Under the pieces are notes generated by a model. It was given only the letters and a program-made list of their open reading frames with translations, did not search any database and was not told the origin of the DNA. From positions 1 to 48,394 of the forward strand of contig JAGASY010000070.1 in assembly GCA_017621515.1 (NCBI GenBank): a stretch of 48,394 bases of DNA. The letters are read 5' to 3'. A program made the position numbers and the translations under genes. Of this stretch, positions 2,241 to 48,394 are shown one piece after another; positions within the stretch are counted from its first letter, which is position 1, and each line of letters opens with the position of its first letter. Source of the DNA: Bacteroidaceae bacterium (GTDB lineage: Bacteria; Bacteroidota; Bacteroidia; Bacteroidales; Bacteroidaceae).

Positions 2241-3060
2241 TAACACTCCCATAACAAAATTTTTTATATGCATTTTTTAACAAAAATATTTTCTGACAAA
2301 ATGATAGCATATTTCGGCAAACAAAGTCTTATTTACTTATTTTTAATTAAAATACTTTCTTTTTGATTTTACCAAATGTTAAAATCCCAAGCCCTCTGGA
2401 ACGCTCCAAAATGAAGCCCATCGAACTTTTCTCAAAGAATGGGGCTTTTATGCGCATTTCGTGAAGCCTCATAAAATTGTGAAATAGTGTTTCATTTTTG
2501 GACGGTTCTTTTACATTTGTTTATTTTCAGCGAAGAGTCTTTGAAAAAAAATTACTAAGTTTTCAAATCTCCAGCGCACTGTCGTCATATTTTCAGCGCA
2601 CTGCAATTTTCTTCACAGCGCACTGGAAATTCTCTCACTGTGCGCTGAAAATTTGAAAACAGCGCGCTGAAAATAAAATTGCAGTGGGAAGCAGAGAAAA
2701 AGACAATTTGCTTCAGTTGAAATGTTAAGAAGTGTGTAAATCTCGGCTTTGGAAGTGTGTCTGAACAGAAACTTAAAAGTGAATGGATTTTTGGGAGTAT
2801 TAGAGGGTGGAAATAATCAATTCAGCTGTAAACTATTAATAATCAATAAATTACCAAAGCATCCAAATTTTTCAAAAAATGATGTCTGATGCGTTTTTTG
2901 AGCATTTGGAGCAAAATTATATTCAATTGATTATCAATGTTTTATCTTCATGATAAAAATTTCGTCTTTTCGCCCTCGGCAAAAATCCGCTTGAAGTGTT
3001 AAATTTTCATTTTGACCGAAAATATCATTTTGTCATTTTGAAGAACGGCTTTTTAGCGTG
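2241..3060 (+). repeat. Long intergenic repeat, copy A
   Basis: About 820 bp of AT-rich non-coding DNA fill the gap between the divergent aldo/keto reductase and ychF genes. It shares ordered conserved blocks with copies B, C, D and E: CCATAACAAAATTTTT at the start, CCAAGCCCTCTGG, GTGAAATAGTGTTTC, TTTACATTTRTTTA, the 22-bp ladder of boxes, a distal pair of complementary arms (2839-2847 with 2926-2934), and TTAAATTTTCATTTT near the end. No reading frame is convincingly conserved. The boundaries are estimated from where similarity to the other copies fades. Confidence 0.85.
2528..2691 (+). other. 22-bp-pitch box ladder in long repeat A
   Basis: Eight 10-bp boxes start at 2528, 2550, 2572, 2594, 2616, 2638, 2660 and 2682, each exactly 22 bp after the last. 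In order they read CAGCGAAGAG, AATTACTAAG, CAGCGCACTG (three times), CTGTGCGCTG (inverted form), CAGCGCGCTG and CAGTGGGAAG. The 12-bp spacers differ and are mostly A/T. The central boxes are near-palindromes, as expected of dimer-binding sites. That reading is an inference. Confidence 0.8.
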
Positions 3061-3167
3061 ATTCTTGCTGTTGAATACATCCGCTCACCCCAACCGAATA
3101 CAAACACTAAAACATAGCCCCACGCTTAAAAAGTGAATTAAAAAAACAGCATCTTGACAAAAAAGCG

Positions 3168-3190
3168 TAACTTTGCGGAAATTAACTTTG
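3168..3190 (+). promoter_or_regulatory. Two candidate -7 boxes upstream of ychF
   Basis: TAACTTTG occurs twice, at 3168-3175 and 3183-3190, about 40-60 bp upstream of the ychF ATG. Both match TAnnTTTG. A TTGAC at 3154 is too close to the first box and too far from the second for ideal spacing, so which one is used is unclear. Confidence 0.45.
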
Positions 3191-3229
3191 CTACAGAATA
3201 TTACAAAATAGAAAAAACATAAAAATAGT

Positions 3230-4333
3230 ATGGCATTAAAAGCAGGTATAGTAGGACTTCCGAATGTCGGTAAATCAACTCTTTTCAATTGCCTGTCGAG
3301 CGCGAAGGCACAGGCAGCCAATTTTCCGTTTTGCACAATAGATGCGCAGCTGGGACAAATATCTGTTCCTGACGAGCGACTGACCAAACTTGCAGAGCTT
3401 GTACACCCGGGACGTATCGTTCCTGCCACATGCGACATAGTAGATATAGCAGGACTCGTGAAGGGAGCAAGCCGCGGAGAAGGACTGGGCAACCAGTTCC
3501 TTGGTAACATACGCGAATGTGACGCAATCATACATGTGCTCCGCTGCTTCGACAATGGGAACATCGTGCATGTTGACGGCTCTGTTGACCCTGTACGCGA
3601 CAAGGAAATCATTGACACTGAGCTTCAGCTCAAAGACCTTGAAACGGTGGAGAGCCGCATCAAGAGAGTCGAAAAGATTGCCAACGTAGGCGGCGACAAG
3701 CAGGCAAAGGTAGAACTCGAACTGCTGCTCCGCTACAAGGCTGCCCTCGAACAGGGACTGAGCGCACGCACCGTGGAGCTTGAGACGGAAGAGGAAATCG
3801 CAGCAGCGAAGAACATGTTCCTTCTCACCACCAAGCCGGTACTCTATGTCTGCAACGTAGATGACGCAAGTGCAAAAAGCGGCAATGCCTATACGGAGGC
3901 GGTGCGCAATGCCATTAAAGACGAAAATGCGGAGATGATTATCATTTCGGCACAGACAGAGGCGGACATCGCAGAACTGGAGACATACGAAGAGAAGCAG
4001 ATGTTCCTTGAAGACCTCGGACTGAGCGAAAGCGGATGCAACCGCCTCATCAAAGCCATATACTCGCTCCTGAACCTTGAAACCTTCATCACGGCAGGAG
4101 AAATGGAAGTGAAGGCATGGACTTACCGCAAAGGCTGGAAAGCTCCTCAGTGCGCTGGAGTGATACACACAGACTTCGAAAAGGGATTTATCAGGGCTGA
4201 GGTCATCAAATATGAGGACTACATCAAGTACGGCTCTGAATCGGCAGTGCGCGAAGCCGGAAAACTCGGTGTAGAAGGCAAGGAATATGTGGTACAGGAC
4301 GGCGACATCATGCACTTCAGATTCAATGTATAA
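3230..4333 (+). CDS. ychF: Ribosome-binding ATPase YchF
   Basis: The 367-aa product is a full-length YchF/OLA1, a universally conserved Obg-family P-loop protein that hydrolyses ATP rather than GTP and binds ribosomes. The G1 loop GLPNVGKS is at residues 9-16 and the switch II motif DIAGL starts near residue 72. The position usually occupied by NKxD reads NVDD, in keeping with the altered nucleotide specificity of this subfamily. The C-terminus has the TGS-type end with AWTYRKGWKAPQCAGVIHTD and VVQDGDIMHFRFNV. It stands alone, downstream of long repeat A, with TAACTTTG-type -7 boxes at 3168 and 3183 in its leader. Confidence 0.97.
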   Translation: MALKAGIVGLPNVGKSTLFNCLSSAKAQAANFPFCTIDAQLGQISVPDERLTKLAELVHPGRIVPATCDIVDIAGLVKGASRGEGLGNQFLGNIRECDAIIHVLRCFDNGNIVHVDGSVDPVRDKEIIDTELQLKDLETVESRIKRVEKIANVGGDKQAKVELELLLRYKAALEQGLSARTVELETEEEIAAAKNMFLLTTKPVLYVCNVDDASAKSGNAYTEAVRNAIKDENAEMIIISAQTEADIAELETYEEKQMFLEDLGLSESGCNRLIKAIYSLLNLETFITAGEMEVKAWTYRKGWKAPQCAGVIHTDFEKGFIRAEVIKYEDYIKYGSESAVREAGKLGVEGKEYVVQDGDIMHFRFNV

Positions 4334-4362
4334 GGCATCATGCCTCTACGGCAGAAGAACAT

Positions 4363-4413
4363 GGAAATACGGAGACACGGAGAAGAAGGAAACAATCCGT
4401 ATCTCCGTTTTCC
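4363..4413 (+). terminator. Hairpin terminator after ychF
   Basis: GGAAATACGGAGACACGG (4363-4380) is nearly complementary to CCGTATCTCCGTTTTCC (4397-4413), giving a long imperfect stem 30 bp past the ychF stop. There is no strong T tract directly after it. Confidence 0.5.
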
Positions 4414-4440
4414 GATAATTCACATCATTATGTATTTAGA

Positions 4441-4531
4441 AACTGTTTAAAAATTATGTGGATGTATTCAGCAGACTCCTCCATTTGTTTGGTAAGTCTG
4501 TCGAATACAATCACTAAAATTTAAAACAGTT
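4441..4531. repeat. Short GGAGTCTGTC-family repeat, inverted pair ending in AACTGTTT/AAACAGTT
   Basis: Left arm 4441-4479 and right arm 4493-4531 are imperfect inverted copies, each about 39 bp. The outer ends are AACTGTTT and AAACAGTT, and the inner ends carry the AGACTCC / AAGTCTG part of the short repeat. The element lies between ychF and lgt and looks like a small non-autonomous insertion, although no target duplication is obvious. Confidence 0.65.
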
Positions 4532-4576
4532 CTTATATTTCCACCCAAACACATTTTTCAAAAAAAACCAAAGAAT

Positions 4577-5506
4577 ATGTCAACACTTTGTTTCATAGAC
4601 TGGCAACCAAGTCTTGAGATTCTAAAAATAGGCGGCTTCTCACTCCGATGGTATTCCTTCCTGTGGTGTGTAGGACTGCTGTTTGCCTACCTCATCGTAC
4701 AGAAGCTCTACAAGCAGCAGAAGATAGCAGACGAGAAGTTTGAGCCGTTGTTTCTCTACTGTTTCTTCGGAGTTCTTATCGGTGCACGTCTCGGACACTG
4801 CCTGTTCTACGAACCGGAGTATTATCTCGGCTCTGTGAAAGGAGTCATGGAAATGATTCTGCCTGTCCGCTTCGCCCCTGACACATGGGACTGGGAGTTT
4901 CGCGGCTATGAAGGACTTGCCAGCCACGGAGGCGCGATAGGGCTGACTGCTGCACTGATTCTCTATGTAAGGAAGATAAAAGTGCCTGTACTGACCGTCC
5001 TCGACAATGTGGCGATAGCGACTCCGCTCACAGCATGTTGCATAAGACTGGGCAACCTGATGAACTCGGAGATAATCGGCAGTCCGACAGACCTGCCGTG
5101 GGGATTCCTGTTCCACACACGCGATACTCTTGTCGAAGGAGTGCTTGTACCCCGACACCCGGCACAGCTGTATGAAGCACTGGCATATCTCTGTATTTTC
5201 ATTGCAGAAATCGCCATATACCGGAAGTTCGGCATCCAAGACACACACAGCCACAAGCCAATAATGCCGCAGACAAGCACGGAGAAGCACACCGGAAGCA
5301 TGTCCGCCGGAACAGGCTTCTATTTCGGCTTCTGTCTCACCACCATCTTTGTGTTCCGCTTCTTTGTCGAATTCATAAAGAAAGAACAGGTGGATTTTGA
5401 AGAAGGTATGCTTCTCGACATGGGACAGCTGCTCAGTATTCCGTTCATCATAGCAGGCATCATATTTATGCTCAGAAGCAAACAAGCAGCTACACAGAAC
5501 AAATAA
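4577..5506 (+). CDS. lgt: Prolipoprotein diacylglyceryl transferase
   Basis: This 309-aa inner-membrane enzyme transfers diacylglycerol from phosphatidylglycerol to the lipobox cysteine of prolipoproteins, the first step of lipoprotein maturation. The Lgt signature is present as RLGNLMNSEIIGSP (residues 157-170), followed by the conserved HPAQLYE (from residue 195) and an early RLGHCLFYEP. Multiple hydrophobic segments fit the seven-helix fold. An extra hydrophilic stretch with THSHKP and KHTGSM near residues 243-262 comes before the last helices. The next gene, a large secreted protein, begins 11 bp after the stop, so they are probably co-transcribed. Confidence 0.97.
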   Translation: MSTLCFIDWQPSLEILKIGGFSLRWYSFLWCVGLLFAYLIVQKLYKQQKIADEKFEPLFLYCFFGVLIGARLGHCLFYEPEYYLGSVKGVMEMILPVRFAPDTWDWEFRGYEGLASHGGAIGLTAALILYVRKIKVPVLTVLDNVAIATPLTACCIRLGNLMNSEIIGSPTDLPWGFLFHTRDTLVEGVLVPRHPAQLYEALAYLCIFIAEIAIYRKFGIQDTHSHKPIMPQTSTEKHTGSMSAGTGFYFGFCLTTIFVFRFFVEFIKKEQVDFEEGMLLDMGQLLSIPFIIAGIIFMLRSKQAATQNK

Positions 5507-5517
5507 AAACTCATCAC

Positions 5518-8500
5518 ATGAAAAAATCAACCATCCTTATCGGCATTATATGGTTCTGTCTGGGAGCCTATGCACAGAAAATTCAGAAACCCGTCATCAC
5601 AGACATCAGCAAAAGCAATATCCGTTATAAGATTTCGGGGAACACCGTATGGGAAATCACCAACTCATCGGTGGTAACAAACCACGAGACAGGGGTGTCG
5701 TTTGACCTTCTGACACAGGAAGAGAAGGACGCGGGACACACATGCAGAATATCCGACATAAACGAGGCGGGAACAGCCGCTATCGGAAGCTACGACAGCA
5801 AAAGCGCCTACTGGTCGAAAGAAAACGGAGGATGGAGACTGCTTGAAATGCCTGAAGACCGAGAAGGAAACATTACGGCTATGTCCGACAACGGTAAATT
5901 TGCGGTGGGAAGCATCCCTCCGTCTGCCGATGATATATACAAGGAAGAAGCTGTTATATGGGATCTTACCACGGGAAAGATGATCAGTCCGGAAGGAATA
6001 CCGGAACTGGACATGCAACATGACAATCAGGAACAGAACAGATTCACAGACATATCGCCGGACGGACGCTACATACTCGGAAGCATGTCGTTCTCATACG
6101 TATATCCGATAGCACTTTTCAGCTACATATACGACAGGGAAGAAAAGACTTACCATGCCATAGGATTCACTCCGGACGATATGCGCCCTTGGCAACCTCA
6201 CTATGAGAGTCTGCTTTTCACAGACTTCCCGCAGATGAGCCACAACGGAAAATGGGTGACCGGACAGGCATATATAGGCAAGGAGATACCGGGAAGCCAG
6301 TTTCTGAATGAATATCGGGTGGCTTTCAGATACAATGTCGTCACCAAGGAGACAGAAGTGTTCGACACAGAGGACGGACAGGATATCACCGGTTATCAGA
6401 TTGATGACAACGGAAACGTATATGGTGCCACACCAACAAATGTGCCGCTGCGCGAATGGTATATCCATACGGGAAAATACTGGATTGGCGGACAGCAAAT
6501 CTATTCACAAAAATACGGAATCGACTTTTACAGCTATACAGGATTTAACTATACAGGTACTCCCACCGCTATCACCGGCGACGGACGGTATATGCTGTGC
6601 CTTGTAGATCCGAATATGACAGAAAGCTATTTTGTCGAATTTCCGAATCCCATCCCAGAAGAATGCAAGAGCATCAACCTTCTCGGGAACTACAGAGTCA
6701 ATCCGGAAAGTGGTTCTTCTTTCACCACACTGAGAAACATCGACGTCACTTTCAGTCGGAATATCAATATCATAGCCGATGGAAACAGTGTGGAACTACA
6801 GGATGAAGAAGGTAACGTCATAAGAAAATCCCTCAGCATCAAAACCACGGACAACAGCAAGAATAAGATAAGAATTGCATTCAGAACGCAGAATCTGGAG
6901 CAAGGAAAGAAATATTTCATCGTCATCCCTGCAGGTACAGTAAGTATCAGCGAGGATGTTTCAATGACAAACGAAGAAATCAAGATTGAATACACCGGAC
7001 GAGAAAACAAGCCGGTATCAATGCAATCCGTTTATCCGGCTGATGGTTCTGCTATCGCAAAAATAGACTACTCGGCTAATCCGGTGATTCTGACCATGAA
7101 CACCCATGTGGCACTGACAGACACAGCATCCGCCTATCTGTACAGCACAACAGACGGCAAATATATATGCAACATGACTCTTGCGCGTAACGGCGACAGA
7201 GTGGCTGCATATCCGACAGGCACGCAATATTTGTTTGAAGGCAACAGCTACACTATTGTCATTGAAGAAGGTTCTATCACAGACATCACAGGAGGGTGTC
7301 CAAACGAAGAAATACGGATTAACTACAACGGACTATATGTAAGAGAGATAAATTCAGACGAGCATATTCTGTTCAGCTGCGACTTCAACAAGATGGATGT
7401 TTCGCTACAGACATTCCTGTTGTACGAAGGAGACCACAACACACCAACCTCAGATATGCAAAGTCTGGAGTTTAACAAAGACAACACACCGTGGAATTTC
7501 TCCATACGCGAATCTATCGCTTCTTCAGACTTCTGCGCCGCTTCACACTCTTCTTATTTCCCGGCAGGAAAGAGCGACGACTGGATGGTCACTCCGCAAT
7601 TGTATATTCCTGACGAGAAATGTATCCTGAGTTTCGATGCCCAAAGCTACCGAAACGGATGCGAAGACCGGATAAAAGTAATTATATTTGAAAGCGACGA
7701 ATCATACAACTATCTCACAGCGAATACCATAGAGAAGATGAAGCGTGAGGGCAAGGTTGTGGTCAACGAAGTTCTTTCTCCCGGGCTGTCGGAAGAAGAC
7801 CTGAGTGACGACTGGCAGAACTTTTCTGTGAGCCTTGCAGAATACAGCGGCAAAAACATTTACATCGCATTTCTGAATGACAACGAGAATCAGAGCATGA
7901 TTTTCGTGGATAATATCACAGTGGAACACAATACACTCCATACCATCGCTCTCAACAATCCGCAAACCGTCATAGGCAAAGAAAGTGAAGTAATATCCGG
8001 ACTCATCGGCATCAACTCCACAGCAGAAGAATATACGACAGTGGAACTCACGCTTAAAGACAATGACGGCAACGTCATAGACCAAATATCGGAAAACGGA
8101 ATCAACCTCAAAAAGGGAGATACCTACCGGTTTGCTTTCAACAAGCCGCTTCCACTGACTGTCGGCGAAACCACTATATTCAGTATCGAGACCCGGTTGA
8201 ACGACTATACTCACACCACAACAAGCTTCATAAAGAGCCTCATGTTTGAAACAACCAAACGCATTGTTCTTGAAGAATACACCGGAGCCGACTGCGGAAA
8301 CTGCCCTATGGGAATACTCGCCATCGAAAATCTCGAAAAGAACTTAGGCGACAGGTTTATCCCGATTTCCATCCACACATACGGCTCTGACCGCCTGAGC
8401 GTGGGACTCGGCAATTATACGTCTTATCTCGGACTCATAGGTGCTCCGAGCGGAATCATCAACAGAAACGGGATTATCAGCTATCCTATGTGGCAGAATC

Positions 8501-12004: not shown

Positions 12005-12079
12005 GCGGGTGTATTCGACAGATTCCTTATGCTTTAAATGTGTGCGATAACGACAGAGGAGTCTGTCGAAGACATCCGC
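12005..12079. repeat. Short GGAGTCTGTC-family repeat, inverted pair
   Basis: The left unit 12005-12027 (GCGGGTGTATTCGACAGATT, then CCT) and the right unit 12057-12079 are inverted copies with a few mismatches. It lies on the upstream side of long repeat B. Confidence 0.75.
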
Positions 12080-12122: not shown

Positions 12123-12945
12123 GAGCCCCATAACAAAATTTTTTATATACCTTTTTTAACAAAATTATTTTCTGACAAAAAGAAAGTAATTTAGACTGAT
12201 TTAACTTCTATTTGTTAGTTTTACTTCGAAATACTATCTTTTTGATTTTGCCAAATGTTAAAATTCCAAGCCCTCTGGCACGCGTCAAAATGAGGCATGC
12301 CGAACTTTTCTCGCAGAACGGAGATTCCGTACGCATTTCGGGAAGCTTCAGCGAATTGTGAAATAGTGTTTCGTTTTGGAACAGTTCTTTCACATTTATT
12401 TATCTCCCGCAAAGAGTCTTCTGAAAAAAACTACTAAGTTTTCAAATTTCCAGCGCACTGTCGCCAAATTTTCAGCGCACTGTAATTTTATTTTCAGTGC
12501 GCTACAATTTTAAAAACTTAGTAGTTTGGAGAAAATTTCAGCGTAGAGTTTTTGAAAAAGTACCGGGAAACAGGAAAAAAGTCAGTGGAGTTCGTTAAAA
12601 ATGTTAAGAAATGTATAACTGGCGATTTTGAAAGTGTGTCTGAACAAGAACTGAAAAACAAGTGGATTTGAAACGATGTTTGAGGGTGAAAGCGGAGAGA
12701 TTTATCGTAACACACTAATAATCAAAAGATTATAAAAACACTCAGAAATCTTGAAAAATTGCGTCCGGCATGTTTTTTTGAACGATTTTTACAAAATTGT
12801 ATTCTATTGATTGTCAATCAGTTATCTTTATAGCAAAATTTTCATCTCTTTGTCATCAACAAAAAACCGCCTCAAGTGTTAAATTTTCATTTTGGGCGAA
12901 AATATCATTTTGTCAAATTGGAAAAGTCGGTTTTTGCAGTTTTTA
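12123..12945 (+). repeat. Long intergenic repeat, copy B
   Basis: About 820 bp lie between the divergent permease and ftsX genes, with the same block order and orientation as copy A. The opening (CCATAACAAAATTTTTTATA), CCAAGCCCTCTGG, GTGAAATAGTGTTTCG, the ladder, the distal complementary arms (12718-12725 with 12807-12814, one G-T wobble) and the closing TTAAATTTTCATTTTGG are all present. Short repeats bracket it on both sides (12005-12079 and 12947-13019), giving a composite-like arrangement. I see no convincing gene in it. Confidence 0.85.
12407..12592 (+). other. 22-bp-pitch box ladder in long repeat B
   Basis: Boxes start at 12407, 12429, 12451, 12473, 12495, 12517, 12539, 12561 and 12583, always 22 bp apart. 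They read CCGCAAAGAG, AACTACTAAG, CAGCGCACTG (twice), CAGTGCGCTA, CTTAGTAGTT, CAGCGTAGAG, TACCGGGAAA and CAGTGGAGTT. AACTACTAAG and CTTAGTAGTT are exact reverse complements that bracket the three central dyads. Confidence 0.8.
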
Positions 12946-20343: not shown

Positions 20344-20823
20344 ATGACTTCATCCTTTATGCACACGACTTATCTTGCGCTTGGCACCAATCTTGGCGAC
20401 AAACGGGCAATGATGAATACAGCCATTGATGAAATAGGCAGAAGAGTGGGTTTTGTCAAAGCGTGTTCTTCGTTCATGGAGACACTCCCTTGGGGATTTG
20501 AAAGCTACAATTCGTTCCTCAATGCCGCAATATGCGTGGAGACACCGTTGTCGGCAGAAGCATTGCTTGTTGCCACACAGGAGATAGAGCGTGACATGGG
20601 AAGGACATTGAAGTCTGTGAACGGAATATATCATGACCGTATTATAGACATTGACATATTGTTGTATGATGACAAGATTCTGTCCTGTCAGAATCTTGCC
20701 ATACCTCATCCGCAGATGCATCTGCGGCGGTTTGTGCTGGAACCGCTTGCAGAGATTGCATCCGATGTGGTTGTACCGGGTAGAAACAACACAGTCGGTG
20801 AATTACTTTCCATGCTTGAGTGA
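20344..20823 (+). CDS. folK: 2-amino-4-hydroxy-6-hydroxymethyldihydropteridine diphosphokinase (HPPK)
   Basis: The 159-aa product transfers pyrophosphate from ATP to 6-hydroxymethyl-dihydropterin in folate synthesis. It has the usual HPPK features: LALGTNLGDK at the start, ETLPWGF-type loop (METLPWGFESYNSFLNA), DRIIDIDILLYDD with the metal-binding aspartates, and IPHPQMHLRRFVLEPL. It starts 19 bp after the lyase/beta-helix gene and is followed by a gap before the minus-strand AraC gene. Confidence 0.95.
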   Translation: MTSSFMHTTYLALGTNLGDKRAMMNTAIDEIGRRVGFVKACSSFMETLPWGFESYNSFLNAAICVETPLSAEALLVATQEIERDMGRTLKSVNGIYHDRIIDIDILLYDDKILSCQNLAIPHPQMHLRRFVLEPLAEIASDVVVPGRNNTVGELLSMLE

Positions 20824-26435: not shown

Positions 26436-27265
26436 ACTCCTATAAAAAATTTTTGACATCGTTTTTGAAAGAGATTGTTCATTCTAACAAAATGATGCAG
26501 TATTTCGTAAAACAGAATCTTTTTTTATGAATTATGGCTATAATGCTATCTTTTTGATTTCTTCAAATGTTAAAATTCCAAGCCCTCTGGAACGCTTCAA
26601 AATGAAGCGCACCGAACTTTTCTCGGAGAACGGGGATTTTATGCGCATTTCGTGAGGCTTTCGAGAAATGTGAAATAGTGTTTCGTTTTAGAGTAGTTCT
26701 TTTACATTTATTTACCTCCTGTGAAGAGTCTTTCGGAAAAAACTACTAAGTTCTCAAATTTTCAGCGCGCTGTCGTCACATTTTCAGCGCACTGCAATTT
26801 TAAGCACAGCGCACTGGAAATTCTCTCACTGTGCGCTGAAAATTTCAAAACAGCGCACTGAAAATAAAAAAACACAGGGAAGCGGAAAAAAAGTCAGCGG
26901 ACTTCGGTCAAAATGTTAAAAGATGTATAATTGACTGTTTGGAAAGAGTGTCTGAACAGAAATTGAAAAGTAGGCGGATTTCGGGCGGTATTTGAGGACA
27001 AGAATTACGGATTTGGATGTAATAAATTAATAATCAGCATATTATTAGAAATTTCAAAAAGTTTGAAAAATTACGTCTGGCACGTTTTTTTGAGCGATTT
27101 TTACAAAATTGTATTTTGCTGATTATCAATAATTTATCTTTAAGTCAAAATTTTTATATTTTCGACATCAGCAAAAAAACATCCGAAATGTTAAATTTTC
27201 ATTTTGGGCGAAAATATCATTTTGTCATTTCAGAAAAGTTGATTTTAGCTGTTATTTTGCTGTTT
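26436..27265 (+). repeat. Long intergenic repeat, copy C
   Basis: About 830 bp between the divergent GH127 and ompH genes. It has the same orientation and block order as copies A and B, including CCAAGCCCTCTGGAACGC, GTGAAATAGTGTTTCG, the ladder, and TTAAATTTTCATTTTGGGCG. The distal complementary arms are ATAATCAGCA (27030-27039) and TGCTGATTAT (27117-27126), a perfect 10-bp pair whose sequence differs from copy A in a compensating way. A MITE-like short-repeat pair follows at once. Confidence 0.85.
26719..26904 (+). other. 22-bp-pitch box ladder in long repeat C
   Basis: Boxes start at 26719, 26741, 26763, 26785, 26807, 26829, 26851, 26873 and 26895, exactly 22 bp apart. They read CTGTGAAGAG, AACTACTAAG, CAGCGCGCTG, CAGCGCACTG (twice), CTGTGCGCTG, CAGCGCACTG, CACAGGGAAG and CAGCGGACTT. 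The central five boxes have the same orientation pattern as copy A. Confidence 0.8.
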
Positions 27266-27273
27266 TTAGTGAG

Positions 27274-27459
27274 TGTCTTCGACAGACTCCTCCGTCGCTA
27301 CCGCGCCACCTCCCCTAAGCTTAGAGGAAGAGCCTATATACCTCACCTTGAAAAGATTATGATGTGGGTGTATAGCACTGACGTCCAACATGGTAACTTG
27401 GCTCCTCCTCTAAGTTAAAGGAGGTGGCGCGGTAGCGACGGAGGAGTCTGTCGAAGACA
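27274..27459. mobile_element. MITE-like element with 40-bp perfect terminal inverted repeats
   Basis: The arms at 27274-27313 and 27420-27459 are perfect reverse complements over 40 bp (outer end TGTCTTCGACAGACTCCTCC). The 106-bp middle has no gene. Related right-half sequence opens the window at 1-68. The size, perfect arms and dispersed copies suggest a non-autonomous transposable element, although no transposase or clear target duplication is visible. A regulatory or terminator role is also possible. Confidence 0.65.
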
Positions 27460-27553
27460 TCCACTTAAACAACAAATCCCTCACACAACAAACAAATTGA
27501 AAACTGTATCTGAGTTTTGAGAACAAAATAATCTGTATATCATACTTTTTTCG

Positions 27554-28220: not shown

Positions 28221-28278
28221 GAGGAGTCTGTCGAGGACAACTGCAAAAACAAACGGAGGAGTCTGTTGAATACATCCA
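28221..28278 (+). repeat. Two direct short GGAGTCTGTC-family units
   Basis: The units GAGGAGTCTGTCGAGGACAA (from 28221) and GGAGGAGTCTGTTGAATACA (from 28255) lie in tandem in the same direction between ompH and murI. Other loci of the family have inverted pairs. Confidence 0.8.
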
Positions 28279-28343
28279 CTCAAACATAACACCCACATAA
28301 TTACAAAGAAATAATTAGAATAATCTTTAATAACAAACCCAGA

Positions 28344-29250: not shown

Positions 29251-29374
29251 TAAGTGGATGTACTTGACAGACTCTCATGCGTTAAATAGGCGCGTAGCGA
29301 CGGAGGAGTCTGTCGAATACATCCGCTAATGCACCTATTTAACGCATGAGGAGTCTGTTGAAGACACCCACTTA
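29251..29374. repeat. Short GGAGTCTGTC-family inverted pair with a third unit in the middle
   Basis: The arms 29251-29290 and 29334-29374 are imperfect inverted copies (several mismatches and one indel). Their inner ends contain ATGCGTTAAATAGG and its complement, so a long hairpin is possible. The middle (29291-29333) holds another plus-oriented unit with GTAGCGACGGAGGAGTCTGT. It lies between murI and the CPBP gene. Confidence 0.75.
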
Positions 29375-38699: not shown

Positions 38700-39400
38700 A
38701 TTTATCTTATTTTATTATCTTTTTGTCACTTCAAAATTTTAACATTCTATTTACGAAAAAACGCGATTTTTCGGGCTTTTTCCGAGCGAGAGGAAGTTTC
38801 GTTGAAAAATACGCTTATTTTTGAATTTTCTGAAAGCCGCTCTCAAATGTGAAATAGTGTTTCGTTTTGAAGCGATTTGTTTACATTTATTTATATCCGG
38901 CGAAGAGCTGTTGGAAAAAAGTACTAAGTTTTCAAATTTCCAGCGCACTGTTTTTTTCTTGGATGCGCACTGTTTTTTCAACCGCAGCGCACTGCAATTT
39001 TAACTGCTTAGTAGATTGGAGAAATTTTCAGCGTAGAGTTTCTGAAAAAACACTGGGAAATGGGATAAAAAACAGTATTTTCAAGATTTTCTGTTAATGA
39101 ATGTAAATTTCTCTATTTGCCCGAAAATCTGTACAAAAATGGGCAAGAGAAATAAAAATTGATACGAATCAAGTATTATAAAGGCTAACATGCAGCAAAT
39201 CAATTGTTTACTATTTTAATCAGAGGTGCTGGTTTTAAAGGTAAAACTGATACCTTTTTCAAAAATGTTATCTTGTTGATTTATAAAGTATTAGCAAAAT
39301 AGGGCGGATTTTTCGAAGTGTAAATAAGTGTTTCAAATGTTAATTTTCGAGCAGGGGCGAAAATCAAAGTGTCAAAAATCCAAGAATGGCAGGAACGCAT
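38700..39400 (+). repeat. Long intergenic repeat, copy D (more divergent)
   Basis: About 700 bp within the 1332-bp gap between the divergent caspase-like and M16 genes. It keeps GTGAAATAGTGTTTCGTTTT, TTTACATTTATTTAT, the ladder, and weaker versions of the distal blocks. It lacks the CCAAGCCCTCTGG block and the opening block, so it looks older or partly decayed. The remaining flanks (38188-38699 and 39401-39480) are AT-rich with no gene that I can support. Confidence 0.75.
38898..39082 (+). other. 22-bp-pitch box ladder in long repeat D
   Basis: Boxes start at 38898, 38919, 38941, 38963, 38985, 39007, 39029, 39051 and 39073. All intervals are 22 bp except the first, which is 21. They read CGGCGAAGAG, AAGTACTAAG, CAGCGCACTG, ATGCGCACTG, CAGCGCACTG, CTTAGTAGAT, CAGCGTAGAG, CACTGGGAAA and CAGTATTTTC. 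The order matches copy B even though the spacers differ. Confidence 0.8.
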
Positions 39401-42662: not shown

Positions 42663-43367
42663 ATGCTGACAGACGAACTTATCTCCGCTTATATGGAAGG
42701 AAATACCAATGAAGCGGAAACAATGCTGGTAATAGAAGCCATGCAGTGTGACTCCCGACTCCGTGAGTTTATGCAGATGTCAGAAGATATAGACAACGAA
42801 CTGTACAGCGGGCATTCATGCAAGGCCGACGGCAGCTACAGACAGACAAAGGATATTCCGATGACGGCGGTGGCAGCCTCTGACGGAGATAAAAACCTGT
42901 GCGACATACAATGCGAGCATTTCATCATGCAGCGCAAAGGTATAGAAATCAGTGACAAGATGCTTGCAGAAGAGGCGACAAAGAATGAATGGCTATATTC
43001 GGAGGGTACACCTCTATATAATATAGGACGCTTATTAGCTTCGATGAACTTCCGTGTGGAGCGTCGGTTCCATTGCAGCCTGTCGGACATAGACGAAGCT
43101 TTGAAGAACAGACAGGACATTATTGTCATTGTAGATGGAGGTGAACTGACCGGCAACCGTGAGGCTGAGAAACTTGAAGACATACTTGTGGGCGAGATAC
43201 CAGACCATGCTGTGGTTGTCACTGCCCATGACGCAGAAAAGGGCACAGTCTGTGTGTATGACCCTCAGAGCCTCCATGAATGCGACACCTATCCCGAGGA
43301 ACAGTTTCTCGACGCTTGGGCTGACTCATGCAGTTATCTCGTTACTTGCGAATTTTTAGGCTTGTAG
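42663..43367 (+). CDS. Anti-sigma-like N-terminus joined to a papain-like C39-type peptidase domain
   Basis: The 234-aa protein starts with a short helical segment (LTDELISAYMEGNTNEAETM) of the type found at the head of anti-sigma factors (ELISAYLDGEL-like). Residues about 75-230 resemble a C39-like papain-fold peptidase. The putative catalytic residues are Cys80 in NLCDIQCEH (Cys84 is a second candidate), His182 in IPDHAVVVTAHD and Asp200 in VYDPQ. There is no membrane segment or signal peptide, so it should be cytoplasmic. It lies 6 bp after the sigma factor gene and is followed by a terminator. Whether it is active is unknown. Confidence 0.7.
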   Translation: MLTDELISAYMEGNTNEAETMLVIEAMQCDSRLREFMQMSEDIDNELYSGHSCKADGSYRQTKDIPMTAVAASDGDKNLCDIQCEHFIMQRKGIEISDKMLAEEATKNEWLYSEGTPLYNIGRLLASMNFRVERRFHCSLSDIDEALKNRQDIIVIVDGGELTGNREAEKLEDILVGEIPDHAVVVTAHDAEKGTVCVYDPQSLHECDTYPEEQFLDAWADSCSYLVTCEFLGL

Positions 43368-43395
43368 CCTTTTTATCAGTAGGACATAATTTTCA

Positions 43396-43427
43396 AAAAG
43401 GGGACAGATAGTTTTCTGTCTCCTTTT
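43396..43427 (+). terminator. Terminator after the C39-domain gene
   Basis: AAAAGGGGACAGA (43396-43408) pairs with TCTGTCTCCTTTT (43415-43427) with one G-T wobble. The stem runs directly into further Ts. Confidence 0.85.
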
Positions 43428-43494
43428 TTTGTTCGTATTTTTATAACCACAGGGGGAATACCGGGGACTTATATCTGTCCCAATAAATACATAG

Positions 43495-43529
43495 CTGTAA
43501 CAAATAAAATTAAAACAGTTTCTTAATGC
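43495..43529 (+). repeat. Small dispersed repeat matching 12084-12118
   Basis: The stretch CTGTAACAAATAAAATTAAA continuing to TTTCTTAATGC is about 33 bp long and close to the one after the short-repeat pair at 12005-12079. It sits just upstream of the TonB receptor promoter. Confidence 0.5.
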
Positions 43530-43559
43530 TTCTGATATTTTTATGAAACAACAGCAGGA

Positions 43560-43567
43560 TAATTTTG
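43560..43567 (+). promoter_or_regulatory. -7 box upstream of the TonB receptor gene
   Basis: TAATTTTG matches TAnnTTTG and is 21 bp before the ATG at 43589. No good -33 TTG is present, so an alternative sigma factor is not excluded. Confidence 0.4.
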
Positions 43568-43588
43568 CCGGTGAAAAAAAGTGAATGA

Positions 43589-46339
43589 ATGAATAAAAAA
43601 TTTTTTAAGCAGATTTCAAGCGCAACAATTCTTTGGATGCTGGTCACACCCAATATTAATGCAGCCGTTATCAAAGGAATCGTGACCGATCAGGAAACAA
43701 ATGAGCCTCTAATTGGTGCAACAGTATGGGTAACACCCTCAAATACGGGAGCCGTCACAGATTCGGATGGTATATATACTCTTCAGCTTCCCGAAGGAGA
43801 ATACAGTCTTACCGTCAAATATGTAGGATATGCCGATATAAACATGACCGGTGTGACATTGAATACCGACACACTGGTTGTCAATGTGATAATGAAGTCC
43901 GATGCCCATGTTCTGGGTGAAGTCAAGGTGGCAGCTTCGATGAGAAAGGATACTGAGATAAGCTTGATTCAGCAACAACGTGCCGGCTCGGTGGTCTTGT
44001 CCGGAATTTCCGCACAGCAGATAGAGAAGACACAGGACAAGGATGCTTCGGAAGTCATTCGCCGCGTGCCCGGCATTTCCATTATTGATGAGAATTTTGT
44101 GATGGTCAGAGGACTTTCCCAACGGTATAACAATGTGTGGATGAATGGCAGTGCAGTGCCAAGTTCCGAGGCAGACTCAAGAGCATTCTCTTTCGACATA
44201 GTGCCAAGCTCTCAGCTCGACAACATAACGATAGTAAAAAGTCCGGCACCCGAGTATCCGGCAGATTTCACCGGCGGATTCATCTTGGTCAATACAAAGC
44301 AACAGCCGAATGAAGGCGGATTCAACATAGGAGTCGGGACAGGGTTCAACGACCGAACACATTTCCGCAGTTTTCGTGCCACAAACGGGCATTCTCCTTT
44401 TCCGTCAAAATCACTTGTCACCTATCCGGGCTACAATGACAGAATCAGCATCACCGACAACCGTTTTGAAAACAACTGGCTTGTCAAGAAACTAAGTCCT
44501 ATTGCTGACCTGAAATTAAATTCGAGTTACACCCATACATGGGAAACAAAGGAGGGAATGAAGTTCGGACTATTGTCCTCAGTCAATTTCTCAAGTTCCT
44601 ATAAGACGATGCCCGACATGGAAAACTCTTTGTATGGACCTTACGACACGTCCAACGACAAAGATGTGGCATTGAGAAAGGCAACAGACAACCAATATGT
44701 CCATGACATACGGTTAGGAGCCATGCTGAATCTGTCGTTGCGTCCTTGTGACGAAAGGCACTTTTTTGAATGGAAGAATGTCTTCAATCTCATCACCAAA
44801 GACCGATATTCTGAACGCATCGGTTTCAATGCTCAGTCTGACAACATCAATGACACGGAATACTATTACTCCTCTCGTCCGACTTATAACACTCAGTTTA
44901 CCGGAAAACATACGTTTGACAATGACTACATAGACTGGAGTATGGGGTATGCGTTTGCCAGAAAAGATTTGCCCGACCGCCGACTCATCCAGCGTACAGA
45001 CCGCACGGAGCAGACTATGGGGATTTATCGAATCAGCCGTGAGTTTACCCGCCTTGACGAACATATAAGTTCACTAAATGCCAACTACCGCCATTCGTTC
45101 AGACTGTCAGGAACTGAACCAGAACTAAAAGCCGGTTTCTACGGTGAATATCGTACCCGCACTTACGACACACGGCAATTCCAATACGGATGGCAGCCGA
45201 ACAATTCGCTTGCACCGGGCTTTATGTTCAATCCTGATGTCCCCGGCAATGTACTCATCGACGAAAATTATGGTCCGGACAAACTGTATCTTTATGAAGA
45301 GGTGAACTATCTCAACAACTACAAAGGCAATCAGTCGCAAGCTTGCGGATACATCGGGATAAACCTCCCCATCAAACAGCTGTCGATATATGCCGGCACA
45401 AGATATGAATTCTGCCGTCAGGAACTGAAGATGAACACCCGTCAGTACGAAGAAAGTCTGCACAGCACAACTTACAACTACAGCGATTTCTTTCCGTCGG
45501 TCAACACCACTTATCGCTTCAACGATTTCCATCAGATACGAGCCGCATACGGCCGCTCCACCAACCGCCCCGAGTTCAGAGAATTATCCTCTTCCGTATT
45601 TTATGATTTTGACCTTGGAAGCTCCGTGATGGGCAATGCCGACTTGAAGGCAGCCTACATTGACAACGTGGATTTGAGGTATGAGTTCTATCCGTCAAAA
45701 GGAGAGATTATCTCTGTAGCGTTGTTCTACAAACACTTCAGCAACCCGATAGAATGGACATACACGGTAGCCGGAGGCACAGACCTTATCTATTCCTTTG
45801 TCAATGCCCACGGAGCAGACAATTATGGCATAGAGATAGACCTTCGGAAGTCGCTTGACTTCATAGGGCTGAAAGACTTCTCGCTGTCCTTCAACGGCGC
45901 ACTCATAAAAAGCAAAGTGACTTTCGATGAAGGTACAAATAACATTGACCGTCCGATGCAGGGACAATCGCCTTACCTCATCAATGCGGGAATATTCTAC
46001 AACAACAGCGACAAAGGCTGGAATGCCGCCGTCCTGTACAACCGTATAGGCAAACGTATTATTGGTGTCGGAAACAGATATGGCACATCTTCTGACGGAA
46101 CGGCCCGCAACATCCCTAATTCTTACGAAATGCCGCGCAACAGTATTGACATATCTGCCGGCAAAAAGTTCGGAAAATGGAACCTGAAACTGGCTGTCAG
46201 AGACATTCTTGCTGAACGCTATCTGTTCAAGCAGATTGAAGAAGTGTCTGTAAATTCACAGAAAAAAAGCATAGAAGAGACCACCCGAAGCTACCGGCCG
46301 GGAAGAAACTTCAATCTGTCGCTCTCGTATGAGTTTTAA
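43589..46339 (+). CDS. TonB-dependent outer-membrane receptor
   Basis: The 916-aa protein has a signal peptide (ATILWMLVTPNINA), a carboxypeptidase-regulatory-like domain (residues about 28-105, IKGIVTDQETNEPLIGATV), a plug domain (about 130-235, DASEVIRRVPGISIID, VRGLSQRYNNVWMNG) and a long beta-barrel ending in FNLSLSYEF. It imports a bulky nutrient using TonB energy. The plug sequence and length differ from SusC-type glycan receptors, and no SusD gene follows. The next gene, 37 bp away, encodes a lipoprotein likely to be its surface partner. The ATG at 43589 is used because the ATG 4 bp earlier hits a stop at once. Confidence 0.93.
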   Translation: MNKKFFKQISSATILWMLVTPNINAAVIKGIVTDQETNEPLIGATVWVTPSNTGAVTDSDGIYTLQLPEGEYSLTVKYVGYADINMTGVTLNTDTLVVNVIMKSDAHVLGEVKVAASMRKDTEISLIQQQRAGSVVLSGISAQQIEKTQDKDASEVIRRVPGISIIDENFVMVRGLSQRYNNVWMNGSAVPSSEADSRAFSFDIVPSSQLDNITIVKSPAPEYPADFTGGFILVNTKQQPNEGGFNIGVGTGFNDRTHFRSFRATNGHSPFPSKSLVTYPGYNDRISITDNRFENNWLVKKLSPIADLKLNSSYTHTWETKEGMKFGLLSSVNFSSSYKTMPDMENSLYGPYDTSNDKDVALRKATDNQYVHDIRLGAMLNLSLRPCDERHFFEWKNVFNLITKDRYSERIGFNAQSDNINDTEYYYSSRPTYNTQFTGKHTFDNDYIDWSMGYAFARKDLPDRRLIQRTDRTEQTMGIYRISREFTRLDEHISSLNANYRHSFRLSGTEPELKAGFYGEYRTRTYDTRQFQYGWQPNNSLAPGFMFNPDVPGNVLIDENYGPDKLYLYEEVNYLNNYKGNQSQACGYIGINLPIKQLSIYAGTRYEFCRQELKMNTRQYEESLHSTTYNYSDFFPSVNTTYRFNDFHQIRAAYGRSTNRPEFRELSSSVFYDFDLGSSVMGNADLKAAYIDNVDLRYEFYPSKGEIISVALFYKHFSNPIEWTYTVAGGTDLIYSFVNAHGADNYGIEIDLRKSLDFIGLKDFSLSFNGALIKSKVTFDEGTNNIDRPMQGQSPYLINAGIFYNNSDKGWNAAVLYNRIGKRIIGVGNRYGTSSDGTARNIPNSYEMPRNSIDISAGKKFGKWNLKLAVRDILAERYLFKQIEEVSVNSQKKSIEETTRSYRPGRNFNLSLSYEF

Positions 46340-46376
46340 CCACAACAAATAACAATCTTATTTTATTAACAAAAGT

Positions 46377-47861
46377 ATGAAGATTAGATTTATGCAAAAA
46401 GGAAAGCTGCTGATGACCGGAATAGTCGTTGCGGCAGGGTTTATGATGAGTTCATGTTCGTCCGACGAGTCTGCACCTTCAGACACTAAAGAGCCGGAGG
46501 TCACTTACAAAGGCAATGTAGCTTATAGCAACGGAATCTTGTTCAATGGTGGGACAGAACTGGGAAACGGAACACAGAACTTCCACTTCACCGGTGACGT
46601 GACACTTGAAAAAGGAACCTATCTGCTGAAAGGATGGGTGTATGTCGATGCTGGTGCGAAGCTGACAATCCCGGCAGGAACCATCATCAAAGGCGACAAG
46701 CAGACAATGGCGTCGCTCATTGTAGAGCCGGGCGGATATGTGGAAATGAAAGGCACTAAGAACGAGCCTATAGTGATGACTTCGGCACAGGCTCCGGGTA
46801 ACCGCCGTCCCGGAGACTGGGGCGGTCTCATCATTTGCGGAAAAGCCCGCAACAACCAGATTACGATGCAGATAGAGGGAGGTCCTACTACCATTCATGG
46901 AGGAGACAACGACAATGACAATTCCGGCATATACCAGTATGTGCGTGTAGAGTTTGCTGGCTATCCGTTTGATACAGACAAGGAAATCAACGGCGTCACT
47001 TTCGGCTCCGTGGGACGTGGCACGACAATAGACCACCTTCAGGTGTCGTACTCTAATGACGACTCATACGAGTGGTTCGGTGGAACTGTCGATTGCAAGT
47101 ATCTCGTGGCATACAAGGGATGGGACGATGAATTTGATACAGACAACGGATTCAGCGGAACCGTAGAATATTGTCTGTCGATACGTAACCCGAGAATTGC
47201 CGACACATCGCAGTCCAACGGTTTCGAGAGCGACAATAACGCAAGCGGCTCAGAAACAATGCCTTTCACTTCAGCCATGTTCCGCCATGTCACATTCATC
47301 GGTCCGATGACAGCCGAAAATGCCGGTTTCCGCAACAGTTCCGAATATATCACGGCAGGGAACGTATTTCCCGGCAATGGCTCAAAGCTCGGACTCTTCC
47401 AATCAGCCATACAGATTCGCCGAAGCAGCAAACTGAATGTAGAGAACCTTTTGGCGGTAGGCTATCCCATTGGTCTCATCATAGACGGAGAGAAGGGCAG
47501 CACTGTGAAATACGCTTCGCAGGGAGAGTTCAAACTCGACAACATCATTTTTGCCGGAATGGGAATCATCGGCAGCGACAAGAACAAATTGTATGAAGAC
47601 TATCTTTACGACTTTGCCACCGGAACAGAAGACAAATCTGTGGAGTCGTTCTCTCACACATTCTTCCTGTCGAATCCTAACAACAAGATAATGGATGAGG
47701 CTGCATTGCAGCTGTCAGACCCGATGAAAACCGGTCAGAACTACTGCCCTTCATCGGTTTTATACGACAGCAAAGGCGGCTATATAGGTGCCTTTAGAGA
47801 TATTTCTGACAATTGGCTTGAAGGATGGACTAATTTTGATCCTCAGAATACAATCTATTGA
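46377..47861 (+). CDS. Surface lipoprotein with a parallel beta-helix fold
   Basis: The 494-aa protein has a lipoprotein signal with the cysteine at residue 27 (GFMMSSCSSDES). The mature part contains repeated helix-turn motifs of a right-handed parallel beta-helix (VYVDAGAKLTIPAGTIIKGD, RRPGDWGGLIICG, YVRVEFAGY). It lies 37 bp after the TonB receptor gene and should be the cell-surface partner that binds the ligand or caps the barrel. The ligand is unknown. A strong terminator follows. Similar proteins are sometimes mislabelled as transporters in databases. Confidence 0.85.
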   Translation: MKIRFMQKGKLLMTGIVVAAGFMMSSCSSDESAPSDTKEPEVTYKGNVAYSNGILFNGGTELGNGTQNFHFTGDVTLEKGTYLLKGWVYVDAGAKLTIPAGTIIKGDKQTMASLIVEPGGYVEMKGTKNEPIVMTSAQAPGNRRPGDWGGLIICGKARNNQITMQIEGGPTTIHGGDNDNDNSGIYQYVRVEFAGYPFDTDKEINGVTFGSVGRGTTIDHLQVSYSNDDSYEWFGGTVDCKYLVAYKGWDDEFDTDNGFSGTVEYCLSIRNPRIADTSQSNGFESDNNASGSETMPFTSAMFRHVTFIGPMTAENAGFRNSSEYITAGNVFPGNGSKLGLFQSAIQIRRSSKLNVENLLAVGYPIGLIIDGEKGSTVKYASQGEFKLDNIIFAGMGIIGSDKNKLYEDYLYDFATGTEDKSVESFSHTFFLSNPNNKIMDEAALQLSDPMKTGQNYCPSSVLYDSKGGYIGAFRDISDNWLEGWTNFDPQNTIY

Positions 47862-47894
47862 TATTGCGACAAAACAAGAATAATAGTCTTCTAA

Positions 47895-47935
47895 CTGCAC
47901 TCCGAAAGTTTTCGTACCTAACTTTTGGAGTGCAG
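47895..47935 (+). terminator. Terminator after the lipoprotein gene
   Basis: CTGCACTCCGAAAGTT (47895-47910) pairs with AACTTTTGGAGTGCAG (47920-47935) with one G-T wobble and a 9-nt loop. Confidence 0.8.
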
Positions 47936-47990
47936 CTCTGTTTAGCTCAAGATACAATCTGTTTCACTTTAGACTACGGTCTAACGCAGA

Positions 47991-48394
47991 AGTCCCATAA
48001 CAAAATTTTTGACATCGCTTTTTGGAATGTAGTTCTATTTTGACAAAATGACAGTATTTTTGTAATTTTAGTTTCAATTTAATGGTTTTGTGTCAAAATA
48101 TTATCTTTCTGATTTTGTCAAATGTTAAAAATCCAAGCCCTCTGGCACGCGTCAAAATGAAGCTCGCCGGACTTTTCTCGAAGAATGGGGATTCTGTGCG
48201 CATTTTCTGAAGCCTCCGCAAAATGTGAAATAGTGTTTCGTTTTGAAGCCGTTCTTTTACATTTATTTATCTCCGGCGAAGAGTTTCTGAAAAAAAACTA
48301 CTAAGTTTTCAAAATTCCAGCGCACTGTCGTCACATTTCCAGCGCACTGTTTTTTTTGCCACAGTGCGCTACTTTTTTATTTGCTGTGCGCTGA
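47991..48394 (+). repeat. Long intergenic repeat, copy E (cut by the window end)
   Basis: The copy begins with CCCATAACAAAATTTTTGAC and carries CCAAGCCCTCTGGCACGCG, GTGAAATAGTGTTTCG, TTTACATTTATTTAT and the first six ladder boxes before the window stops. The next gene lies outside the window, so whether this copy is also between divergent genes cannot be seen. Confidence 0.85.
48274..48394 (+). other. 22-bp-pitch box ladder in long repeat E (partial)
   Basis: Boxes start at 48274, 48296, 48318, 48340, 48362 and 48384, all 22 bp apart: CGGCGAAGAG, AACTACTAAG, CAGCGCACTG (twice), CAGTGCGCTA and CTGTGCGCTG. The ladder runs off the end of the window. Confidence 0.8.

What the first reader, a model, noticed from the sequence alone, without database searches (positions are those of the whole stretch)
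2528..48394. Five intergenic ladders of 10-bp boxes at a strict 22-bp pitch
In every long repeat, 10-bp boxes start 22 bp apart (sets beginning at 2528, 12407, 26719, 38898 and 48274; the only exception I found is the first interval of the fourth set, 21 bp). The 12-bp spacers vary freely, and boxes may be inverted (CAGCGCACTG versus CAGTGCGCTA or CTGTGCGCTG) or of another type, yet the pitch holds. 22 bp is close to two turns of B-DNA, so all boxes face the same side of the helix. The central boxes are near-palindromes (CAGYGCRCTG), fitting a dimeric protein binding cooperatively. Such an array could be a nucleoid-organising, partition or anchoring site. I know of no described Bacteroidales system like this.
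Basis: partly seen in the sequence, partly recalled or inferred. Interest (0 to 1): 0.92.

Follow-up and report, generated by a model that had tools for sequence, protein, structure and literature searches.

The report
Two-turn DNA ladders tiling a chromosome
A bacterium related to Bacteroides carries, on average every 11,000 letters in the fifth of its genome examined, a short ladder of near-mirror-image DNA sites set 22 (in a second family 21) letters apart, about two helix turns, which are likely landing pads for a protein that would help organise the chromosome.

Summary
The five ladders are the core of an intergenic repeat of about 800 bp. In 720 kb of this genome (21%) there are 57; of 175 intervals between neighbouring boxes 160 are 22 bp, 14 are 44 and 1 is 66. 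The copies are old (about 183 substitutions but 2 indels per 730 bp). Two congeners carry the same architecture with other boxes (CACCGCGGTG; CAAGG-type), mostly again at 22 bp. Different, mostly palindromic ladders at 21-23 bp occur in intergenic DNA of other Bacteroidaceae. This genome has a second ladder family (21-bp pitch); together 67 ladders, mean gap 11.0 kb, no neighbours under 5 kb (21.9 expected). In another genus the listed ladders of two families with unrelated boxes stay at least 9.9 kb apart over 1.2 Mb. No convincing RNA fold was found, and in the second family only one of two dyad position pairs covaries, which favours a dimeric protein over hairpins. Best reading: helically phased, cooperative protein-binding arrays that space or anchor the chromosome, carried by MITE-like repeats. 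The protein is unknown and binding untested. Main rival: a selfish repeat with target immunity. Nearest published relative: BrickBuilt of Porphyromonas gingivalis.

The parts
2247..3037 (+). Repeat copy R1 (leader, ladder, tail), family 1
   Evidence: Conserved block in 48 aligned copies, almost without gaps
2528..2669 (+). Ladder of R1: boxes at 2528, 2550, 2572, 2594, 2616, 2638, 2660 (pitch 22)
2294..2306 (+). Left inverted-repeat-like end TGACAAAATGATA of R1
   Evidence: outer block 2247-2293 is also conserved, so the true left end is uncertain
3023..3035 (-). Right inverted-repeat-like end TATCATTTTGTCA of R1; matches the junction of a G001 insertion
2841..2853 (+). IHF-consensus-like site (WATCAANNNNTTR), present in 28 of 48 copies at this place
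   Evidence: the consensus is recalled, binding untested
2932..2944 (+). IHF-consensus-like site, present in 30 of 48 copies at this place
12126..12916 (+). Repeat copy R2; ladder 12407-12548 in the mirror-symmetric form
   Evidence: an element also stands beside the left neighbour gene in G001 and beside the right neighbour gene in G002
26438..27228 (+). Repeat copy R3; ladder 26719-26860
38700..39380 (+). Repeat copy R4 (divergent); ladder 38898-39039, first interval 21 bp
47994..48394 (+). Repeat copy R5, cut by the end of the contig; ladder 48274-48393

Best explanation
The ladders are the core of a dispersed intergenic repeat whose near-palindromic boxes, 22 bp apart, are predicted to be bound side by side on one face of the helix by a dimeric protein, and which likely works as a chromosome spacer or anchor placed about every 11 kb. 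Shown here: the fixed pitch, the dyad symmetry, the length constraint of the whole element, other boxes at the same pitch in sister species, and the regular genomic spacing that holds even between ladder families with different boxes. Inferred: a dimer per box; cooperative filling of the ladder with an AT-rich spacer between dimers; help from an IHF-like bending protein at two fixed sites in the tail; and, as the purpose, delimiting or anchoring chromosomal segments (loop or supercoil domains). The elements themselves appear to spread as MITE-like units (inverted-repeat-like ends, filled and empty sites between species) and to be kept where they do not crowd another ladder.
For: Pitch: 160 of 175 intervals 22 bp, the rest multiples of 22. 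Constraint: 183 substitutions against 2.2 indel events per 730 bp, 47 copies compared with R1. Sister species: CACCGCGGTG-type boxes in 8 of 8 G001 loci read, with 16 of 18 intervals 22 bp, one 44 and one 42 (one locus seen twice counted once); CAAGG-type boxes in G002. Syntenic stretches are 89-95% (G001) and 73-87% (G002) identical. 49 of 57 ladders have a predicted gene on both sides and all 49 are intergenic (ORFs under 450 bp that overlap a ladder were set aside), in the same mix of gene orientations as other intergenic regions (26 co-directional, 14 divergent, 9 convergent), so no tie to promoters or terminators. Spacing: family 1 alone CV 0.39 against 0.86 for random intergenic places, 0 of 2000 nulls as regular. 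Families 1 and 2 together: 57 gaps, mean 11.0 kb, CV 0.36, minimum 5.5 kb; none of 20,000 uniform redraws of family 2 stayed as far from family 1; adjacent pairs under 5 kb 0 observed, 21.9 expected, while an unrelated small repeat clusters beside ladders (15 of 22 within 1 kb, expected 3.7). G010: 32 A ladders and the 21 listed C ladders, unrelated boxes, never within 9.9 kb over 1.23 Mb, circular-shift P 0.002-0.004. Protein rather than hairpin: in 31 family-2 copies one dyad pair of positions covaries (A-T or C-G, 0.87 against 0.53 in box 1), the other (purine/pyrimidine) does not; no convincing RNA fold in 48 copies; no Rfam match.
Against: No protein has been identified and no binding or chromosome-conformation data exist. 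Regular spacing could also come from target immunity of a transposable element. In G010 three box families would need three proteins or a broad one. Exceptions to pitch: 21 bp in R4, one 42-bp step (20+22) in G001. Exceptions to spacing in G010: a B ladder at 704.4 kb lies 3.8 kb from an A ladder, two C ladders are 5.9 kb apart, and two A ladders 228 bp apart (a tandem duplication) were merged before counting; the C list was cut. In G002 the gaps are regular overall (P 0.0008) but family 2 does not lie farther from family 1 than random on average (P 0.48). Positions are only partly shared between species. G002 boxes are not palindromic, and 11 of 38 ladders of other genomes have a dyad score under 0.6.
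Confidence: 0.48

Rival explanations
1. Selfish MITE with target immunity: the boxes bind a trans-acting transposase, which refuses sites near existing copies, so the copies come to lie evenly without serving the host.
For: MITE-like anatomy with inverted-repeat-like ends; presence/absence differences between species, one with a sharp junction at the right end; even spacing; family 2 ends in family-1-like boxes, so the two could share a protein; 22-bp multi-site binding of transposases such as MuA and TnsB (recalled).
Against: In G010 families with unrelated boxes exclude each other, which would need cross-immunity; the ladder is in the middle, not at the ends; length and pitch are kept in old copies; no copy with an internal gene was seen among the 55 matches of 250 bp or more in 720 kb (the 7 partial ones all lie at contig ends); beside ychF all three species have an element.
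Confidence: 0.32
2. Gyrase or topoisomerase sites of the REP/BIME sort: the ladder traps or recruits gyrase rather than a dedicated dimeric protein.
For: About 11-kb spacing, intergenic position, palindromes, high copy number; BIMEs have regularly spaced REPs and bind several proteins (PMC2817692, start of abstract in a listing).
Against: Box sequences differ between species and families while the pitch stays at 21-22 bp; REPs are longer and are not set at two-turn pitch (recalled).
Confidence: 0.1
3. RNA or cruciform structure: transcripts or supercoiled DNA fold the palindromes, serving as terminators or regulators.
For: Palindromes in most ladder families; some alignment windows fold better than column shuffles (z -5 to -10 near and over the ladder, and -41.5 at the right end, but energies of only -2 to -9.5 kcal/mol per 150 columns); BrickBuilt has bidirectional promoter activity (PMC4596501, abstract).
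Against: No extended conserved fold; one of two dyad pairs does not covary; no bias for convergent or divergent gene pairs; G002 boxes are not palindromic.
Confidence: 0.05
4. Iteron-like or phage-origin-like decoys that titrate plasmid or phage replication initiators.
For: Tetrads of palindromes at about two turns resemble the lambda origin and plasmid iterons (recalled).
Against: R1 has no similar DNA in 50,697 phage and 72,556 plasmid records; box-pair patterns of five ladder families gave no ladder in viral contigs, only two chance hits for one of them; even spacing is not explained.
Confidence: 0.03

Closest known systems
BrickBuilt MITE of Porphyromonas gingivalis (PMC4596501; abstract, sections 5, 9, 13 and the first part of section 7 read)
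   Same: Bacteroidales; intergenic; leader, tandem core of about two helix turns per unit (23 nt), tail; short inverted-repeat ends; the unit has a conserved and a variable part.
   Different: 19 copies against an extrapolated 270; 1 to 22.8 units against about five to seven boxes; 23 against 22 bp; IS5-type ends GAGACC... are not the conserved ends here; the word palindrom does not occur in its main text, and even genomic spacing or exclusion between families is not reported in the parts read.
REP/BIME elements with REP-associated transposases (PMC2817692, start of abstract in a listing)
   Same: High-copy intergenic palindromes, regularly spaced within an element.
   Different: No two-turn pitch with free spacers (recalled); no RAYT search done here; an evenly tiled chromosome is not part of the definition.
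matS/MatP and maoS/MaoP macrodomain systems of E. coli (PMC3330122, PMC5441646, PMC5023128; starts of abstracts in listings)
   Same: Dispersed sites bound by a protein that organise a chromosome region; A ladders of G010 are confined to one third of the chromosome.
   Different: matS is a single 13-bp site, not a ladder; each marks one region; no MatP or MaoP homologue was sought.
22- and 23-nt tandem repeats of P. gingivalis W83 (cited in PMC4596501)
   Same: Order, unit length.
   Different: Their exact locations were not given in that report, according to PMC4596501.

Membership tests
BrickBuilt MITE | Intergenic element with leader, tandem core and tail | tested here: met
BrickBuilt MITE | 23-nt direct repeat unit without spacers | tested here: not met
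   22-bp pitch, 10-bp boxes with free 12-bp spacers
BrickBuilt MITE | Terminal inverted repeats GAGACCTTTGCA (IS5 type) | tested here: not met
   Conserved ends read TGACAAAATGATA / TATCATTTTGTCA
MITE in general | Inverted-repeat ends and filled/empty sites | tested here: inconclusive
   One sharp junction at the right end (G001, L111) and an empty site in G002, but the left end is uncertain and no target duplication could be read
MITE in general | A parent transposase with matching ends | not tested
   No search for a parent transposon was made beyond the 720 kb
REP/BIME | REP consensus and associated RAYT transposase | not tested
   -
matS/MatP-like macrodomain marker | Confinement to one chromosomal region | tested here: inconclusive
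   Not testable in this draft genome; in G010 one family (46 box pairs, full list) lies wholly within 10-1229 kb of 3706 kb, another is spread wider
matS/MatP-like macrodomain marker | Cognate binding protein | not testable with these tools
   No protein identified
Structured RNA | Conserved base-paired fold | tested here: not met
   Only weak local pairing, partial covariation, no Rfam match

The most novel reading that the evidence does not exclude
Bacteroidaceae mark their chromosomes with a ruler: phased palindrome ladders of several unrelated box families, each with its own binding protein, are interchangeable posts kept about 5-20 kb apart along the chromosome; the boxes and their proteins coevolve fast, so that sister species use different posts, some of them beside the same genes.
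Probability: 0.33. Interest if true: 0.95.

Novelty: new variant of a known kind. Interest (0 to 1): 0.8.

Why it matters
How the chromosomes of Bacteroidales, major gut bacteria, are folded and segregated seems little studied; the one literature search aimed at this listed 12 of 104 papers, mostly on E. coli and mycobacteria and none on Bacteroides by title. A set of defined, sequence-recognisable posts every 11 kb or so would make domain structure directly testable, and spacing shared between ladder families is a rare sign that position, not box sequence, is what is kept. If instead the spacing is transposon immunity, these would be an unusually clean record of it.

Tried and rejected
RNA: Rfam scans of the window and of L327, L098, L091 gave nothing. 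RNAalifold on 48 copies gave only short local pairings; several windows have z from -5 to -10, and one -41.5, because shuffled columns fold to almost nothing; the lowest energy is -9.5 kcal/mol per 150 columns.

Coding: no 3-bp period in conservation, and no ORF of 100 aa or more overlaps any of the five ladders.

Phage or plasmid origin: all negative or chance.

Cognate regulator via solo boxes: of 6 perfect boxes outside ladders in 720 kb, 3 are at contig ends, 1 is inside ychF, and 2 are the flanks of family-2 ladders; this led to family 2 but to no regulator gene.

Autonomous copy with a gene inside: none among 55 matches of 250 bp or more in 720 kb.

One search shows less: beside ychF (R1) yes, inverted in G001; for R2 an element stands beside the left neighbour in G001 and the right neighbour in G002, while the other neighbour lies on another contig, without an element in the 3.7 kb held (G001, L110) or with an inverted one about 2 kb off (G002, L113).

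Rows dropped or limits: one search scored only 40 of 309 candidates. Searches used the 48 matches of 650 bp or more; the 7 shorter ones lie at contig ends. One search counts 49 of 57 ladders. One search used typed positions: 46 A pairs merged to 32 ladders (one tandem duplicate 228 bp away merged), C only those listed with up to 2 mismatches below 1.62 Mb (the listing of 204 pairs was cut), B left out. One search's null is uniform along contigs, not limited to intergenic places. One search counts 38 ladders, some of them simple repeats; 23 of 38 exceed their own palindrome null; no two are copies of one locus. Absence from other families rests on only 220 kb, and on 100 kb of E. coli, where about 4 and 2 would be expected at the family rate. 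The intergenic filter is a crude ORF mask; of 49 ladders of other genomes checked for neighbours, 12 fell inside an ORF or at an edge.

Literature: eight searches; two papers opened. PMC5771137: passages only. PMC4596501: abstract, sections 5, 9, 13 and part 1 of 2 of section 7. PMC2817692, PMC3330122, PMC5441646, PMC5023128: listing and start of abstract only. That ladders of this sort are not in print rests on these searches of an open-access library.
Full report
Observation. The window (contig 41 of a 3.39-Mb draft in 133 contigs) holds five intergenic copies of a repeat, each with a ladder of 10-bp boxes. CAGYGCRCTG with up to one mismatch occurs 21 times, 3.89 expected. I took nine further contigs as stretches; with the window this is 720,294 bp. 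In it are 57 clusters of boxes; intervals between consecutive boxes are 22 (160), 44 (14) and 66 (1), no other value. In 48 aligned copies the boxes carry 1.75 bits per column and the spacers 1.17; boxes are 33% and spacers 79% A+T. A genome-wide pattern search gave 209 box pairs; the pattern read backwards gave 0.

The element. The aligned copies share about 800 bp (window 2247-3037 in R1). Against R1, 47 copies show on average 183 substitutions and 2.2 indel events in 730 bp: old copies whose length is kept. Conserved inverted-repeat-like ends read TGACAAAATGATA and TATCATTTTGTCA; two sites fitting the IHF consensus (recalled) sit at fixed places in 28 and 30 of 48 copies, against 0.17 per kb over the 720 kb. 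Only weak local RNA pairing is predicted and no Rfam family matches.

Where they lie. Of 57 ladders, 49 have a predicted gene on both sides and all 49 are intergenic (ORFs under 450 bp overlapping a ladder were set aside), 26 between co-directional, 14 divergent and 9 convergent genes, much as other intergenic regions of 150 bp or more (78, 27, 20). Gaps between family-1 ladders (47 gaps, mean 13.2 kb, minimum 6.2 kb) have CV 0.39; random intergenic places give 0.86, and none of 2000 was as even.

Sister species. CAGYGCRCTG pairs occur in none of the other 119 genomes of a search of 120, two congeners included. Yet G001 has the element (best match 71% identical) with CACCGCGGTG-type boxes in 8 of 8 loci read; 16 of 18 intervals are 22 bp, one is 44 and one 42. 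G002 has a distant form with CAAGG-type boxes: 30 of 40 intervals are 22 bp and one 44, the other nine coming from four chance clusters of CAAGG. Syntenic stretches between G000 and G001 are 89-95% identical (a 1.1-kb match on another contig is 73%), those with G002 73-87%. An element stands beside ychF (right of R1) in all three species, inverted in G001; for R2 one stands beside the left neighbour in G001 and the right neighbour in G002, the other neighbours being elsewhere. Other places differ: an element in G001 follows sharply on window position 20,819 where G000 has none; G002 has 152 bp where G000 contig 2 has a copy at 25 kb, and it shows none beside the gene next to the G000 contig-80 copy at 53.8 kb. 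So positions are partly shared and partly turned over, while the boxes differ between species and the pitch is kept.

Family-wide ladders. An autocorrelation scan needs no box sequence. Over 80 named loci around ychF, mostly Bacteroidaceae and Prevotellaceae by title (1.37 Mb), hits in mostly non-ORF DNA have lag 22 (21), 21 (8) or 23 (2); each other lag has 5 or fewer (28 in all), and shuffles give 0. With 13 stretches of 12 genomes of the same family (580 kb) there are 38 ladders of lag 21-23; their dyad symmetry is 0.683 against 0.555 (sd 0.0095) for column-permuted ladders, 23 of 38 above their own 95% null. Eleven stretches of eight genomes of other families (220 kb) and 100 kb of E. coli had none, which is weak evidence of absence. 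Many ladders have about four units and their own palindrome; no two of the 38 are copies of one locus.

Second family here. Two solo boxes led to a second ladder family in this genome: four boxes C(A/C)RCASTGY(T/G)G at 21-bp pitch inside a larger inverted repeat that ends in family-1-like boxes. Of ten copies in the 720 kb, nine lie between two family-1 ladders, mostly in the long gaps, and one beyond the last on its contig. Together there are 67 ladders, 57 gaps, mean 11.0 kb, CV 0.36, minimum 5.5 kb; no redraw in 20,000 of the family-2 places kept as large a minimum distance from family 1, and the mean distance has P 0.00035. Adjacent pairs under 5 kb: 0 observed, 21.9 expected. A control repeat (GAGTCTGTC-type, 22 loci) behaves oppositely: CV 1.11, and 15 of 22 within 1 kb of a ladder. 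In 31 aligned copies the first arm position covaries with its dyad partner (A with T, C with G), most strongly within a box, but the second (purine/pyrimidine) does not. Base-paired hairpins would need both; a protein reading half-sites with one discriminated position would not.

Other genomes. In G002 the second family is present too; on its 132-kb contig 49, 12 ladders of both families lie 7.0-17.9 kb apart (CV 0.24). Over three contigs the spacing is more even than random (P 0.0008), but family 2 is not on average farther from family 1 than random (P 0.48). In G010 (main contig 3.71 Mb) family A (CGGACGCGTCCG) has 46 pairs, all within 10-1229 kb; family C (AAACAATATTGTTT) has 204 pairs, of which the listing showed a part, and conserved flanks in most of seven copies; B (AAGTATWATACTT) was met four times in the sampled stretches. 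In the first 1.23 Mb no A and listed C ladder are within 9.9 kb; circular shifts give P 0.002-0.004. Exceptions (a B ladder 3.8 kb from an A, two C 5.9 kb apart, a tandem A duplicate) are told above. GC skew over 25 sampled stretches is mixed in sign between 0.44 and 0.80 Mb, positive from 0.97 to 2.26 Mb and negative from 2.45 Mb through the end to 0.25 Mb, and the only parS-like match is at 463,671, though the control pattern had 2 matches; so A may be origin-proximal, an inference.

Mechanism. Fixed two-turn pitch, dyad boxes, conserved length and box sequences that differ between species and families fit an array of protein dimers stacked on one face of the DNA. Even genomic spacing, shared between families with different boxes, fits posts that matter by position: chromosome spacing or anchoring. 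Binding, the protein, and any effect on chromosome folding are untested. Target immunity of a MITE is the main alternative.

Known relatives. BrickBuilt of P. gingivalis (PMC4596501) shares the leader, tandem core and tail, but has 23-nt units without spacers, different ends and 19 copies. REP/BIME and matS/maoS share parts of the function proposed. I file the element as a new variant of dispersed intergenic repeats; the tiling across families would be new in kind if its function is shown.

Noticed in passing
window 24-68, 12044-12074, 27264-27318, 27415-27469, 28244-28279, 29291-29369: A second small intergenic repeat (GGAGGAGTCTGTCGAAGACA with a GGGGAGGTGGCGC arm) in direct and inverted copies, enriched beside ladders (15 of 22 loci within 1 kb in 720 kb).
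   Followed up: partly
window 2690-3040 and aligned copies: Conservation in the tail has a period of about 12.95 bp (block-shuffle P 0.004 over the whole tail, 0.08 and 0.35 in its halves), not seen in G002; unexplained.
   Followed up: partly
window 2374, 2720, 2993: AARTGTTAA occurs three times per element, most often 346 and 275 bp apart; in two G001 copies the first distance is 322-324, about one ladder unit less.
   Followed up: partly
G010:C1 10-1229 kb: One ladder family is confined to a third of the chromosome that includes the most GC-rich stretches sampled and a parS-like site; possible macrodomain.
   Followed up: partly
ends of the window contig (48394) and of G000 C3, C4, C7, C10, C11, C99, C124, C132: Several contigs of the draft assembly end inside or within about 100 bp of ladders, so the assembly breaks at these elements and copy counts are minimum values.
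   Followed up: no
L111 (G001:C164) 2966: In G001 an element follows directly on the last codons of a gene (window 20344-20823 in G000), whose frame would read on into the element.
   Followed up: no
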